Positions 1 through 10,350 of a stretch of DNA of 64,000 nucleotides are shown piece by piece (the stretch's first letter is position 1; each line of letters begins with the position of its first letter). The translations under genes were made by a program, and so were the position numbers. A model generated the notes under the pieces. That model made no database searches and was not told the DNA's origin. It saw nothing but the letters and a program-made list of their open reading frames with translations. This DNA comes from Fusarium oxysporum f. sp. lycopersici 4287 (taxonomy: Eukaryota; Ascomycota; Sordariomycetes; Hypocreales; Nectriaceae): contig NC_030996.1 of NCBI RefSeq assembly GCF_000149955.1, forward strand, positions 1,071,467-1,135,466. The letters are read 5' to 3'.

Positions 1-1288
1 GATGAAGAGACCTTCCGTTGTGCCCGTGAGGTTGAGTACCCTGACTACTTCATTGACCTTGGAGACAATGACAGGGCTGACGGGACCTGAAGATGAGGGT
101 CAGTGATTCACGCCCACGGCCATTTGATATGGATTAAAACTACTGACCGCCGGAGGCACAAATGAACTTGGAAGACTCGAATTTGGCCAACACTTCTGGG
201 TTCTCGCCTAGTTCGTCCACAAGTGAAGGCACCATACTCCAGATGTCGATATGATCAGCGAGTGACTCGATCAGTCCGAGATTGGGTAAGACGCCCGAAG
301 GTCCAAGAATACAATGAAGATTGAATAAGGAAGGCATAAGTATATCCATAATTACACCGGCGCCCTATCTTCGTCGTTAGCTGGAGCAGCTTGCCCGCAG
401 GTACACTTACATGGCTCATCGGAAAGGAGGAGTAGATCCTATCACCTTCGTTCCAATTGTCCGTCCAAGGAGCCAATCCACCATCACCTTCAATGGGAGG
501 TAGCAGTCTCACGGCATCCATGGTACCGATCAAGCCGTGCGTCCATAGAATCGGCTTTGGCACGCCAGTAGTTCCCGAAGTGTGCAATATGCAAAATGGC
601 TCGTTGATGACACTCTCGAAAGCCTTACCAAACACAAACAGCTCCGTTGAATCGGCTTCCAGAAGCTCATCTACACTTGGGAGTTCGAGAACTCTCATGT
701 ACTTCTCCTGTAAAATCCCTTCCACTAGGGGGAGCATTGCTTGCTCTCGGGGCTTCACCCAAATACTGCAATCTGAAGCATTGAGAACAGCTAATGCACC
801 GGTGATATTGTTCTTGGGCGAAAGGAAGAGGGCCTGTTTGAACTCATTTAGCATCGTTTGTACAATAATGGGTTCTAGGACAACTTACAGCACAGCCAGC
901 CTTGACAGCACCATAGGTCAACAGCACATGCCGAATGTCATCTGAACCTGTGTGAGGTCTATTTATGTAATTCATGAAAGTCGAGTGTGTACTTACGAGG
1001 TCCGATGTAACCCAAAGCTTGGATCTTCGGCGGCTTCTGTGTTACAGCATGCTCCTGTGCCAGATCGCCGTTCGGAGCTCCATTCATTCCATTGAGATGC
1101 TTATGGAGCCACCATGCTGTTTTGTCAACGGCCCGTCCAAAGGCTTGTGCAGTGATATGCTTAAACTTTGGGGCACCATCGGAAAGGCTGGCAATGGAGT
1201 AGACAACGCGTTCTGGATCCGCCACCGCCAGGCGATCAAGAATCTGGGGAATAAGTCTCCTCCCATATAAGGAATCAGTGTCAACCAT
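1..1288 (-). CDS. NRPS-like adenylate-forming enzyme, N-terminal part (truncated by window edge)
   Basis: This is the 5' part of an adenylate-forming (AMP-binding) enzyme of the fungal NRPS-like type, which activates a carboxylic acid with ATP. Five exons can be joined in frame: 997-1288, 889-947, 411-833, 148-364 and 1-86. Donors are GTAAGT in the first three cases and GTCAGT in the fourth. The adenylation core motif HTSGTTGVPKP is visible in exon 3 and LTGTTEGLFI at the edge in exon 5; both are characteristic of these A domains. The chosen start (1288, MVDTDSLYGRR) matches how such proteins begin. An in-frame ATG at 1333 is an alternative. The carrier and terminal (reductase or thioesterase) domains would lie to the left of the window and cannot be seen. 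It is divergently oriented to the isocyanide synthase, suggesting co-regulation. Confidence 0.85.
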
Positions 1289-2214
1289 TCTGAGCAATAG
1301 ATGAGGACCTTTCAAGATGAGTGAATGATACACAGAGACCTTACGGTGAGTTTGGCAGTGTCAGCCTTATCTCGGTGTTGAATTGACGAACTGACACGTA
1401 AAAAATATGTGAGACCTTGATTCTAGGCGTCAGAAATCTTAGAGCGGCTTTAGATGAGTTTATCATAATAAATCCTAAACTTTGGCAATTTGTTTTCTTC
1501 ACCCTAAAGATACTCTAAGGACCTGCATTATCTTCAGATGGGTTTTATTCGGCACAGGGGCTGGAGAGTTCGAGTCCCATCCAATTTAAACATGTGGTAT
1601 GATGAGAAACGAACTCATTCTCGCTCACAAGAAACTTTCTTTTTTTTCGGTTAACGCCACCAACCAGAAGCTCATATGCCATCCTTGTGTATAATTTCAC
1701 AAAATCAATAATTGGCGACACGACATTTGAGCACATTGTTTAGTGTCTTGATGCATGTAACTTGCTCAGTTCCCCCTGTCCACGCTTGATCACCCCGGAT
1801 CGTGAGCATATAATCAGCCTCAAGTGGATACCCGTTGCGCAGTTTCTCACAGCCACGCTGAACCCCCCTGCCGGCTATACGAGACCCTGCTTATCGAATC
1901 ACAGACTCAACACAGTTGATGTTCCTGCAGCTTGTCACTTCAGTACATACCCCGACACCAGAATATCGTCAGATCGGTCGAATCCTCTAGCTGAATTGGT
2001 CATCAAGACTTTCTTCTGGTGCTGAGGCTTGACCCTGCACATTTCGGCTTCATATTTAATATCCCTGGAAACTTTTAGTTGGGCTCAAACTTTAACCGCT
2101 TTGCATATTTCCACCACGAATCCAACATATCAACGAAAAGTGGTTCATCCTGAAACCCAACACGGATGCCGTGCTACCTCGACGCACCTTAGTCTCAAGA
2201 CATACTCCATCTCC
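1289..2214. promoter_or_regulatory. Divergent promoter region of NRPS-like gene and isocyanide synthase
   Basis: About 0.93 kb separates the two start codons, with no convincing gene inside. An 8-mer TGAGCACA lies at 1728-1735, the complement of TGTGCTCA, which is reported as the copper-response element bound by the Mac1-type activator of Aspergillus fumigatus. A bidirectional role is inferred from gene orientation alone. Confidence 0.45.
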
Positions 2215-7184: not shown

Positions 7185-8162
7185 GCATCCAACAGTAATA
7201 GAGGGGAAAGAAAGGTACCAGCGGTCTCAATTGCCGTGATATCGTCATTTCAGGCATGATGCCTGTACGTGGTCAATAGAAGTTGAATTGCGGCTTCAGT
7301 GTCAGGCGTCAAAAACGAATAAGATTTAGCGGCCATGGCGGGCGCATCCCACTGTAACATGCGATCTCGATGCACCTATGCAGGCGAGTTATGTCACTGA
7401 CCTTTCAAACTATCCTACCTTACTTACTCGCACAAATACATTCAAGACCGCCAATTATCGCAATTTCGGACTCTATCTATTAATTACTGTCTTTTCCAGA
7501 TATCAAGCTCGATGATATGGATAGAGATTATTTCTGTTGTCTTAATAGCCTAGTCCTTATTGACTCCTCTATAGATCCAATCTCACTCACCTCGGTAGTC
7601 TCGGCTACAAAACAGCACCTCCTCATTCTTTTTATCCCACCGGCCATGGCATAATATCATTACAATTGCTTACAATATCAGTCTGCATGTACCTCTATGT
7701 CTGAATCGGCTATGCAAACCTTATCAGACCATGCTAAGCCAGGGTCTTAAAGGCGATGCTCGCTGAAAACCTGGTCCGTGTCCAATGGGGATCTTACTCT
7801 ATTCGGTGCTCCGAAATAAGGTTTGCGGACATGATTCCCTCTTCGGCGTCCTTTTGAATGCGTTCCTGAAACGGCCATTCAAGGGATGAAACAAAACCTT
7901 CGATTTCGGTAATTGAGCGCGGGAGTCGGTTGCACAAAGAAGCAGGTCTTCCAGTGCCAATGCTTGGAATTATCAGTGGCACGTTCTGTTCTGGGGTAAA
8001 TTGTAATGACACCTTCTGTATCAGTCCCGATCAGGTATTTGCTGAAACTGGGAGGGTATAAGATCGCCTTCATCCCATCAATTCTCTTACAGGTACAGTT
8101 TGATCAGCCAAGTTGACCCATTAGAAAATACAAACATTCATTCATTGTCGTTCATTTTGATC
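7185..8162. other. Intergenic region without recognisable gene
   Basis: Nearly 1 kb between the acyltransferase stop and the GMC oxidoreductase start. The frames present are short, lack family resemblance and have no splice structure that extends them. It presumably contains the GMC promoter. Confidence 0.5.
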
Positions 8163-10350
8163 ATGCCTAGATTCCAGGCGCTCACCTTAGCTGCTCTCAG
8201 TTGTCTGCATGCAACAACTGCATCAGCATACCCACGCCAAGATGCCAGTGTGCGCACAGAATACGATTATATTATTGTTGGTGCTGGAGCTTCAGGCCTC
8301 ACTGTCGCCAACCGCCTATCGGAGGACCCTGGTGTGTTCTGCCGTTGCATCGGCCGCCCATGTTTGCTGACGCCCCAACAGCTGTGACTGTCCTCGTGAT
8401 TGAAGCTGGTGACTTGTAAGAGATCTGATATTTGACCGAAGACGAAATACTGACCTCTACATAGCGATAAAAATGAAGACATCGTGACAATCCCGGGCCT
8501 TGCTGGCGGTGCTGTTGGCACAAAGTACGACTGGAACCTTACTTATCCCGCCACCACTTCTCTTAATGGACGCAACGTCTCGATTCCTTTGGGCAAAGTC
8601 GTTGGAGGCTCAACCAAACTTAACCGCATGGTCTATGATCGCGGTTCCAAGGCAGACTACGATCGCTGGGCTGAGTTAGGTAACAGCGATTGGCAGTGGG
8701 ATACCCTGCTTCCTTATTTCAAGAAGGTTGGCAAATTGTTGTCAAGGTCATGCTACAGATTCTAACTTTAATCGCAGAACGAAAAGTTCACTGGGCCGAC
8801 TGCCGATATCAAGAAGGAATACAGCATCACCACGGACCCTTCTGCCCACGGCTCTTCGGGTTTCATTCACTCCAGCTACTCGCCTTTCTTCTGGCCCACG
8901 ACGAGTAAGTGCATCTTTCTTATGTACCATCCGTCAAGCGTACCAATGCTGACAAAACTTCAGAGAATCTTGTTAAGGCCACTGGGGAGCTCGACATCAA
9001 CATCGCCTTCGACCAAGCCAACGGTGGCGCAGTTGGAGGATACTTCTGCCCTCACAACCTCAACCCCAAGACTCTTGTCCGCTCCTCTGCACAGGACTAC
9101 TATAGTGCTGTCTCTCAGCGCAAGAACCTCCAACTTCTACCAGGCAACCAAGTTACTCGCATTCTCACTAGCAAGAACGGAAGTTCCGTGAGGGCTACTG
9201 GTGTCGAGGTAAGCGGTTGCCCTTCTAGAGCAGCTGTTCATGACTAACCATCTTCTTGCAGTTCGCGAAGAACAAGGACAGCGCCAAGAAGACTGTCAAG
9301 GCGACGAAGGAGGTCATCCTTGCGGCTGGAGCCATTCACACTCCTCAGATCCTGCAGGTCTCTGGTATTGGCGACTCGGCTCTCCTCTCCAGCATCGACG
9401 TCCCTGTCGTTGTTGATCTCCCCGCTGTTGGCCAGAACTTCCACGATCATGTTCTACTCGCCGTTGTGGGCACAAGTAAGTATAACCCTTTGTTGAAAGA
9501 ATACAAGAGGCTAATCGTGTTTAGTCAATGCTCCTATTCAAACCGGAAACCTTACTAGCAACGCCACTTTCGCTGCTGAGGCACGCGCTGAATACGACCA
9601 GCAGAAGAAGGGACCTTATACTTCACCCACTGGCGACTTCCTTCTGTTCCTTCCTCTCTCCAACTACACAAGTTCCGCTTCAGACATTCACAAGCAAGCC
9701 ACCAGCCAGGACGGCTCCAAGTTCCTCCCTTCAGGTACACCCACTGAGGTTGTTAAGGGGTACAAGAAGCAGCAAAAGGTCCTCAACGAGAAGCTCCTTG
9801 ATACCAAGTCAGCCATCCTGGAGATTATCTGGGCCGATGGAACCTCAGTCCTTGGTCTTCAGCACCCGTATTCTCGAGGCTCCGTTAAGGCCAAGTCTTC
9901 CAACATTTTCGACTATCCCGATGCCAACCCAGAGTTTCTTAAGAACCCTCTTGATATCGCCATTCTTACCGAAGGTGTCAAGTTTGTTCGCAAGCTTTCC
10001 GGCGCACCCTCAATCAAGACCCTGAACCCCTTCGAGATTGTGCCAGGAGCCAACGTCACAAGTGACAGTGACATTGAACAGTTCATCCGTAGCAGTGCAT
10101 CCACTCTGTTCCATCCCGCCGGCTCTTGCAAGCTTGGTAGCCGCAGCGACGGCGGTGTCGTTGATGAGAAGCTCAGAGTCTACGGCATTAAGGGCCTTCG
10201 CATCGTCGATGCCAGTGTCATTCCTTTGCTTCCTGCCACGCATACTATGACGACTGTTTATGCTGTCGCTGAGAAGGTAAGTTACCCATTAAATTATTTG
10301 AAACATATCTCTGACGCAAATAGGCTGCCGACTTGATCAAGCGTGGTTAA
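8163..10350 (+). CDS. Secreted GMC oxidoreductase (AA3-type)
   Basis: Eight exons join cleanly: 8163-8331, 8382-8415, 8465-8726, 8778-8904, 8964-9208, 9262-9475, 9525-10276 and 10324-10350. The total is 609 residues, normal for FAD-dependent glucose-methanol-choline oxidoreductases. A signal peptide covers about residues 1-22. The dinucleotide-binding motif VGAGASGL follows, then the GMC signature around PLGKVVGGSTKLN. Near the C-terminus HPAGSCKLG and ATHTMTTVYA carry the expected catalytic His and partner residue. The last exon encodes only eight residues plus the stop. The family oxidises alcohols or sugars with O2 or quinones outside the cell or in the secretory pathway. It may be a tailoring oxidase of the adjacent cluster or an unrelated lignocellulose enzyme; position favours the first only weakly. 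Confidence 0.9.

What the first reader, a model, noticed from the sequence alone, without database searches (positions are those of the whole stretch)
1..10350. Candidate isocyanide biosynthetic locus with NRPS-like enzyme, acyltransferase and GMC oxidase
Seen: a stand-alone Dit1/PvcA-type isocyanide synthase diverges from an NRPS-like adenylating enzyme. A GDXG hydrolase and AATase-type acyltransferase form a second divergent pair, and a GMC oxidoreductase follows. Known: isocyanide synthases make isonitriles from amino acids, and in fungi they sit in clusters such as the copper-responsive crm and xan loci of Aspergillus fumigatus. Inference: this gene combination could make an acylated isonitrile with an unusual tailoring set. 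I do not recognise this exact arrangement as a described cluster.
Basis: partly seen in the sequence, partly recalled or inferred. Interest (0 to 1): 0.85.

Follow-up and report, generated by a model that had tools for sequence, protein, structure and literature searches.

The report
Fusarium copper-starvation isocyanide gene cluster
This is the already published copper-starvation (crm) isocyanide gene cluster of the plant-root fungus Fusarium oxysporum; what appears new is that its isocyanide enzyme still carries a worn-down stub of a drug-pump-type transporter, to which the same enzyme is fully fused in related fungi.

Summary
The genes are real. The window lies in Fusarium oxysporum f. sp. 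lycopersici 4287: its NRPS-like protein is 100% identical to FOXG_09770, on a contig of the same length. The stand-alone isocyanide synthase (ICS), NRPS-like enzyme, hydrolase and acyltransferase, plus an MFS transporter left of the window, match the five-gene crm cluster published for this strain as copper-starvation-induced and Mac1-bound (PMC11563359). 'Not a described cluster' is therefore wrong. The GMC oxidase is not among the five.

Two things are added. FOXG_09770 has the adenylation-carrier-transferase domains that follow the ICS in fused CrmA, so this is a split CrmA. And the ICS ends in an approximately 85-residue stub of a PDR/ABCG transporter N-terminus. Other fusaria and several other genera carry ICS-PDR fusions, mostly 1,771-1,880 residues, which my paper searches did not find described. 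Trees nest the stub-bearing ICS within fusions; the stub diverges about five times as much as the ICS core, against 1.25 in intact Fusarium fusions and 1.76 across genera; no detached pump was found. So the transporter was probably lost.

Function: copper-regulated valine-type isocyanide, probably acylated on mannitol (inferred).

The parts
1..1288 (-). 5' part of the NRPS-like gene (FOXG_09770): adenylation-carrier-transferase, 1,209 aa in all; exons 1288-997, 941-889, 833-411, 364-148, and 86 leftwards to L006 7442 (outside the window)
   Evidence: Gene model; Pfam; 100% identity to FOXG_09770
1289..2214 (.). Divergent promoter of the NRPS-like gene and the ICS, with four Mac1-consensus sites (DHNTGCTCA) at 1291(-), 1728(-), 1760(+), 1803(-)
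   Evidence: 4 sites against a mean of 0.40 in first-order Markov simulations, 0 of 1000 reach 4; consensus from PMC11563359, not independent of this promoter
2215..3775 (+). Isocyanide synthase gene (crmA of F. oxysporum), exons 2215-3093 and 3143-3775, intron 3094-3142, 503 aa
   Evidence: PF05141
3518..3769 (+). Stub of a PDR/ABCG transporter N-terminus (ICS residues about 419-502), same exon as the end of the ICS domain; the frame stops just before the first ATP-binding domain would begin
   Evidence: PF14510 5.6e-06; a profile made from fusion proteins only finds it at 4.6e-15, 49.1 bits, in 158 sequences; alignment and tblastn, no further PDR remnant nearby
4067..5116 (-). Alpha/beta hydrolase (FOXG_09772 by published order)
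   Evidence: Abhydrolase_3, 160 bits; gene order PMC11563359
5728..7184 (+). Alcohol O-acetyltransferase-type acyltransferase (crmB, FOXG_09773 by published order), intron 5765-5811 by eye
   Evidence: PF07247 6.2e-11; sequence
8163..10350 (+). GMC oxidoreductase; neighbour, probably not part of the cluster
   Evidence: GMC_oxred_C 1.1e-36; 0 Mac1 sites in 7185-8162; absent from the published five-gene cluster

Best explanation
This is the crm cluster of Fusarium oxysporum f. sp. lycopersici 4287, in a split form. Shown here: a stand-alone ICS and a separate adenylation-carrier-transferase enzyme, whose domains equal the two halves of fused CrmA, share a promoter with a dense group of Mac1 sites. 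Published: Mac1 binds at the cluster and its genes go up when copper is scarce. Inferred from characterised CrmA: the ICS converts L-valine to an isocyanide acid; the NRPS-like enzyme activates it in trans, loads it on its carrier and passes it to a hydroxyl acceptor, probably D-mannitol; the hydrolase and the CrmB-type acyltransferase add or trim further acyl groups; the MFS protein CrmC moves product or metal complex. New: the ICS descends from a single-chain ICS-PDR transporter fusion still present in other fusaria. In this lineage the transporter was lost and a decaying stub remains on the enzyme.
For: Strain and genes: FOXG_09770 100% identical, contig 2,337,134 bases in both; published five-gene cluster and Mac1 data. 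Split CrmA. Stub: PF14510; the five best large relatives cover 99-100% of the query region, stub included, at 63-66% identity, and are ICS-PDR fusions P0121-P0125; profile search E 4.6e-15. Descent: the stub clade (100/89) groups with fusaria that keep the pump (100/98) and then with ICS-PDR fusion P0015 (100/98) in a careful tree of 60 of the 237 ICS-bearing proteins; the quick tree of 111 is similar. Joining stubs with CrmA is rejected, AU p 5.6e-05 (group chosen after seeing the quick tree). The tree of the NRPS-like partners agrees. Decay: divergence of the stub over that of the ICS is 4.98 in 28 stub pairs, 1.25 in 6 Fusarium fusion pairs, 1.76 in 10 pairs across five genera. Loss, not relocation: the best long PDR matches in the own genome are 55-56% identical over 934 and 947 residues, against 81-86% between Fusarium fusions.
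Against: No product from this Fusarium locus came up in my searches; valine and mannitol are carried over from other genera. In the published RNA-seq only crmB and crmC passed the threshold, and crmA, FOXG_09770 and FOXG_09772 were too variable for the main list; crmB was down in planta. The stub frame is still open, so a residual role is possible. The pairwise rates are not independent and are not dN/dS. The intact fusions are database gene models; I could not read their DNA. P0014 (F. austroafricanum), which I labelled stub by kinship although its tail has no PDR match, fell outside the stub clade in the quick tree and was left out of the careful one; P0012's tail matches only at E 0.019. 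In the own genome shorter exon pieces of other PDR genes reach 63-72% over 79-352 residues, and only 26 of 108 candidates were scored. The bootstrap of the careful tree had not fully settled.
Confidence: 0.85

Rival explanations
1. Primitive split state: ICS and NRPS-like genes never fused in Fusarium, and the C-terminal tail is an unrelated linker or chance match.
For: A separate ICS beside a separate NRPS-like gene is widespread: by eye I matched 28 pairs of one species and equal contig length in the tables, ten of them with consecutive locus tags. So the split of ICS from NRPS may well be primitive. PMC10153163 offers that reading for its GCF 8 (passages).
Against: The tail is PDR-derived: profile E 4.6e-15, Pfam cut-off passed. 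ICS-PDR fusions are both sister to the stub clade and outside that pair.
Confidence: 0.05
2. The stub is a retained functional tail, for instance a segment that docks the enzyme to a transporter or to the NRPS-like protein.
For: The frame is open to a similar end in most of the aligned stub-bearing proteins, and no stop or frameshift cuts it in the window.
Against: Stub identity is 28-40% between P0013 and seven sisters while the ICS stays at 87-91%; two rows lack 15 residues and P0012 has lost most of it.
Confidence: 0.12
3. The ICS-PDR fusions are mis-joined neighbouring genes in database annotations.
For: Some long models are odd: P0226 has the NRPS part before the ICS; P0121 lacks a stretch before its ATP-binding signature that P0036 has; P0124 and P0156 are short (1,371 and 1,429 residues).
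Against: 16 of the 114 proteins, from 13 genera by their names, have ICS then PDR in that order with over 1,000 residues of tail, 13 of them 1,771-1,880 residues long; and in this window ICS and PDR sequence lie in one uninterrupted exon.
Confidence: 0.05
4. The GMC oxidoreductase and further neighbours belong to the pathway, giving a larger cluster than published.
For: It lies next to the acyltransferase; a DJ-1/PfpI gene lies beyond crmC on the other side, and a DJ-1/PfpI domain is fused to ICS-PDR in Glarea (P0133).
Against: No Mac1 consensus before the GMC gene; not among the cluster genes named in the section read.
Confidence: 0.1

Closest known systems
crm cluster of Fusarium oxysporum 4287 (PMC11563359; passages and one section read)
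   Same: The same five genes in the same strain, copper and Mac1 control
   Different: The paper calls crmA an ICS-NRPS-like enzyme and FOXG_09770 a transferase family protein; here they are the separate ICS and A-T-transferase halves, and the ICS bears a transporter stub
CrmA of Aspergillus fumigatus and other fused ICS-A-T-transferase enzymes (PMC5974471, PMC9381783; passages read)
   Same: Same catalytic domains, CrmB- and CrmC-type neighbours, copper control
   Different: One polypeptide there, two divergent genes here; the ICS groups with ICS-PDR fusions, and a clade with CrmA is rejected (AU p 5.6e-05)
crm loci of Cochliobolus, Alternaria and Leptosphaeria with an alpha/beta hydrolase between crmA and crmB (PMC9381783; passages read)
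   Same: Order ICS, hydrolase, acyltransferase; linked to isocyanide and acyl esters of D-mannitol
   Different: The paper reports a transporter domain on those CrmA proteins without naming its type in the passages read; an MFS-bearing CrmA in my lists is P0147 from Bipolaris
GCF 8 of the fungal ICS survey (PMC10153163, preprint; passages read)
   Same: Fusarium ICS of one domain beside a separate NRPS with CrmA-type domains
   Different: GCF 8 is linked with terpene synthases; in this genome that fits the locus on contig C13 (ICS, terpene synthase, second A-T-transferase) better than the window
PDR-type (ABCG) full transporters
   Same: The stub matches their N-terminal region
   Different: Only about 85 residues remain here; no ATP-binding or membrane domain

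Membership tests
crm cluster (F. oxysporum) | Five genes: MFS crmC, FOXG_09770, crmA ICS, hydrolase FOXG_09772, AATase crmB | tested here: met
   All five present in order; FOXG_09770 100% identical; the other four tags assigned by published order
crm cluster (F. oxysporum) | Copper-starvation induction through Mac1 | not testable with these tools
   Published RNA-seq and ChIP-seq; here only the motif: 4 sites in the ICS/NRPS promoter, 0 of 1000 simulations as many
Fused CrmA (ICS-NRPS-like) | ICS and A-T-transferase in one chain | tested here: not met
   Two divergent genes with 926 bases between their start codons
Fused CrmA (ICS-NRPS-like) | ICS falls in the CrmA clade | tested here: not met
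   AU test rejects it, p 5.6e-05
Isocyanide synthase (PF05141) | DIT1_PvcA domain over cut-off, homology to PvcA | tested here: met
Isocyanide synthase (PF05141) | Makes an isocyanide | not testable with these tools
   No product evidence from this gene
ICS-PDR transporter fusion | PDR N-terminal segment C-terminal to the ICS in one chain | tested here: met
ICS-PDR transporter fusion | Two ATP-binding and two membrane domains | tested here: not met
   Absent from the gene and from the DNA around it; hence a relic, not a member
xan / ICS-TauD | TauD dioxygenase domain after the ICS | tested here: not met
   Pfam finds no TauD in the tail, which is PDR-like; two TauD-fused proteins served as outgroup

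The most novel reading that the evidence does not exclude
ICS-PDR is a further, old architecture of fungal isocyanide synthases: the enzyme and its exporter were one chain early in the crm-type family, and the pump has been dismantled again and again, leaving an N-terminal stub in the F. oxysporum and F. fujikuroi groups, a membrane-segment scrap in Plenodomus, a C-terminal scrap in Oidiodendron and only the second ATP-binding region in a group with Fonsecaea, Exophiala and Venturia. CrmA with a fused MFS would be a parallel coupling of synthesis and export.
Probability: 0.5. Interest if true: 0.6.

Novelty: new variant of a known kind. Interest (0 to 1): 0.45.

Why it matters
The locus itself is known. 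The transporter relic shows that this Fusarium enzyme is not simply an unfused CrmA half but a former synthase-pump fusion. It points to the fusions of other fusaria as a direct way to ask what the pump exports, and so whether it protects the cell from isocyanides or delivers a copper-binding product. It also sharpens the naming of the published cluster: FOXG_09770 is the adenylation-carrier-transferase half of CrmA.

Tried and rejected
Idea that fused CrmA also passed through a PDR stage: of 98 rows with an NRPS match among the 158 scanned tails, none scored better than E 0.52 against the stub profile, so there is no support. Idea that the pump moved elsewhere: no candidate of the expected identity. 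Idea that GCF 8 of the survey is the window locus: doubtful once a second split pair with a terpene synthase was found on C13. Single Mac1-type sites in the crmC region and in the hydrolase/acyltransferase promoter are within chance (415 and 274 of 1000 simulations); the paper counts none in the latter promoter. Structure prediction was not run. Class and order names of the fungi are recalled.

Rows dropped or hand-picked: the ICS trees used 111 and 60 of 237 ICS-bearing proteins and the NRPS tree 64 rows, chosen for spread; the stub rates used 8 stub rows and 4 Fusarium fusions; three fusions lacking the YQKTF landmark were neither in the profile nor scanned, and 6 of the 17 profile rows are partial models. 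The first count of PDR-bearing proteins (56) included two whose match lies in the ICS end or linker; the strict recount is 54. The protein searches scored only about 8,000 candidates each, and searches list 120 of 416 and 120 of 376 hits.
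Full report
What it is. The window belongs to the genome of Fusarium oxysporum f. sp. lycopersici 4287. The NRPS-like protein that I rebuilt from the window and its left flank is 100% identical to FOXG_09770 of that strain, and the listed contig length, 2,337,134, equals that of the window's contig.

Already in print. PMC11563359 (passages, one section read) describes in this strain a five-gene crm cluster: crmC FOXG_09769 (siderophore-type MFS), FOXG_09770 (transferase family), crmA (isocyanide synthase), FOXG_09772 (hydrolase) and crmB FOXG_09773 (alcohol O-acetyltransferase). 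Mac1 binds there without copper, and all five are reported as up, although only crmB and crmC passed the main threshold and crmB was down in planta. The window and its left flank hold these genes in this order, with the MFS frame at L006 4800-6863. The GMC oxidase is not among them. I find four Mac1-consensus sites in the 926-base ICS/NRPS promoter (mean of simulations 0.40; 0 of 1000 as many) and none before the GMC gene; this is not independent of the paper, whose consensus came from its own ChIP sites, this cluster among them.

Split CrmA. FOXG_09770 has AMP-binding, carrier and transferase domains, the set that follows the ICS in CrmA; A. fumigatus CrmA (P0183) matches it at 58% identity over residues 424-1578. 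So the paper's 'ICS-NRPS-like crmA' is, in this strain, an ICS gene plus a separate divergent gene. Such pairs are widespread: by eye I matched 28 ICS and NRPS-like proteins of one species on contigs of equal length in the listed tables, ten with consecutive locus tags; for the rest, same contig is all that is shown.

The transporter stub. The ICS frame continues past PF05141, in the same exon, into a segment that Pfam calls ABC_trans_N, the N-terminal part of PDR transporters. A length-adjusted search with the ICS part found 114 large proteins. The best ten are ICS fused to PDR sequence: nine of 1,771-1,880 residues and F. venenatum's shorter P0124 (1,371), led by F. langsethiae (P0121, 62 member sequences), with F. 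lateritium and F. flagelliforme, then Hyaloscypha, Stagonosporopsis, Phialophora, Aulographum, Cladophialophora and Clohesyomyces. A profile made from 17 fusion proteins (six of them partial models), without any stub, finds the window's tail at E 4.6e-15 among 158 sequences, and the tails of 12 of the 14 nearest relatives P0001-P0014 at E 2.9e-05 or better; P0012 reaches only 0.019 and P0014 is not listed. The alignment shows the frame ending just before the first ATP-binding domain.

Descent and decay. In a careful tree of 60 ICS domains the six stub-bearing enzymes form one clade (100/89), grouped with the three Fusarium fusions included (100/98), and with a further fusion, P0015, outside both (100/98). 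Forcing the stubs together with CrmA is rejected (AU p 5.6e-05; the group was chosen after the quick tree, and the bootstrap had not fully settled). A quick tree of 111 agrees except that P0014, labelled stub by kinship, sits just outside. In the tree of 64 NRPS-like sequences the window's protein groups with those of fusaria, Purpureocillium and others whose ICS is a PDR fusion, and 23 of 24 fused CrmA rows lie on one side of a branch; the exception, P0131 of Lojkania, looks like a second, independent ICS-NRPS fusion. Relative to the ICS core, the stub diverges 4.98-fold in stub pairs (28), against 1.25-fold for the same segment in Fusarium fusions (6 pairs) and 1.76-fold across five genera (10 pairs). 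The own genome holds PDR pumps at 55-56% identity over long stretches (shorter exon pieces reach 63-72%), but nothing like the 81-86% seen between Fusarium fusions. The pump was therefore most likely lost, not moved.

Wider pattern. Of 237 ICS-bearing proteins listed in my three searches (chosen by similarity to this locus, so not a census), 99 are CrmA-type, four of these with an MFS; 54 carry PDR sequence by a strict count; 82 have neither; two have TauD (a looser count gave 56 and 80). Of the 54, 16 have over 1,000 residues of tail. Some others keep only scraps, from different parts of the pump: a membrane segment in Plenodomus (P0025, P0028, P0031), the C-terminal end in Oidiodendron (P0021), the second ATP-binding region in P0052, P0057 and others. 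Deep branches of the ICS trees are unresolved, so I cannot say whether the fusion is ancestral, and CrmA linkers show no trace of it.

Novelty of the fusion. Searches of the paper library for isocyanide synthase with ABC transporter and fused, PF05141 with ABC transporter, and isocyanide synthase with pleiotropic drug resistance gave 0 papers; isocyanide synthase with Fusarium and transporter domain gave only PMC9381783; a loose search gave 147 papers, of which 20 were listed and none opened for this (two of them are papers cited here). PMC10153163, a preprint, states that all ICS match three architectures, and its main text has no word beginning with ABC. PMC9381783 reports an unnamed transporter domain on CrmA homologues, mainly of Dothideomycetes; its supplements could not be read, so overlap cannot be excluded. 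Only an open subset of the literature is held, and of the papers cited I saw passages, plus one section of PMC11563359.

Likely working. Reported for CrmA: a valine isocyanide that ends in mannitol esters, with hydroxyisovaleryl and acetyl groups in species having the hydrolase between crmA and crmB (PMC9381783). The Fusarium order ICS, hydrolase, acyltransferase resembles those species. I therefore infer a copper-regulated, polyacylated mannitol isocyanide made by two enzymes acting in trans. No product evidence for this locus came up in my searches.

Noticed in passing
window 25665-45095: A siderophore-type cluster: esterase, MFS, Acetyltransf_8 (SidF-like), enoyl-CoA hydratase (SidH-like) and an NRPS with condensation, AMP-binding and carrier domains (Sid names recalled), about 18 kb from the acyltransferase gene of crm; plus a DUF3533 gene.
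   Followed up: partly
L011, L012 and G000:C13:903963-922800: A second split pair in the same genome: another A-T-transferase NRPS-like gene, a terpene synthase, a heavy-metal P-type ATPase (PF00403, PF00122) and a stand-alone ICS with a P450 nearby; probably GCF 8 of the published survey.
   Followed up: partly
L006 4091-4549 (-): DJ-1/PfpI gene next to crmC (PF01965), a candidate isocyanide hydratase; not among the five published cluster genes.
   Followed up: partly
P0133 (Glarea lozoyensis): A 2,088-residue model with ICS, PDR transporter and DJ-1/PfpI domain in one chain.
   Followed up: partly
P0131 (Lojkania enalia): ICS-NRPS fusion that the ICS and NRPS trees place outside the main CrmA group: a probable second origin of the fusion.
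   Followed up: partly
P0134, P0147, P0176, P0224: CrmA-type proteins with a C-terminal MFS transporter: a separate coupling of isocyanide synthesis to a transporter.
   Followed up: no
window 20496-22247: GMC oxidoreductase with a cellobiose-dehydrogenase cytochrome domain.
   Followed up: no
window 55870-55974 and 23188-23287: Two tRNA matches of 105 and 100 bases by Rfam, probably with introns, not reported by ARAGORN as run here.
   Followed up: no
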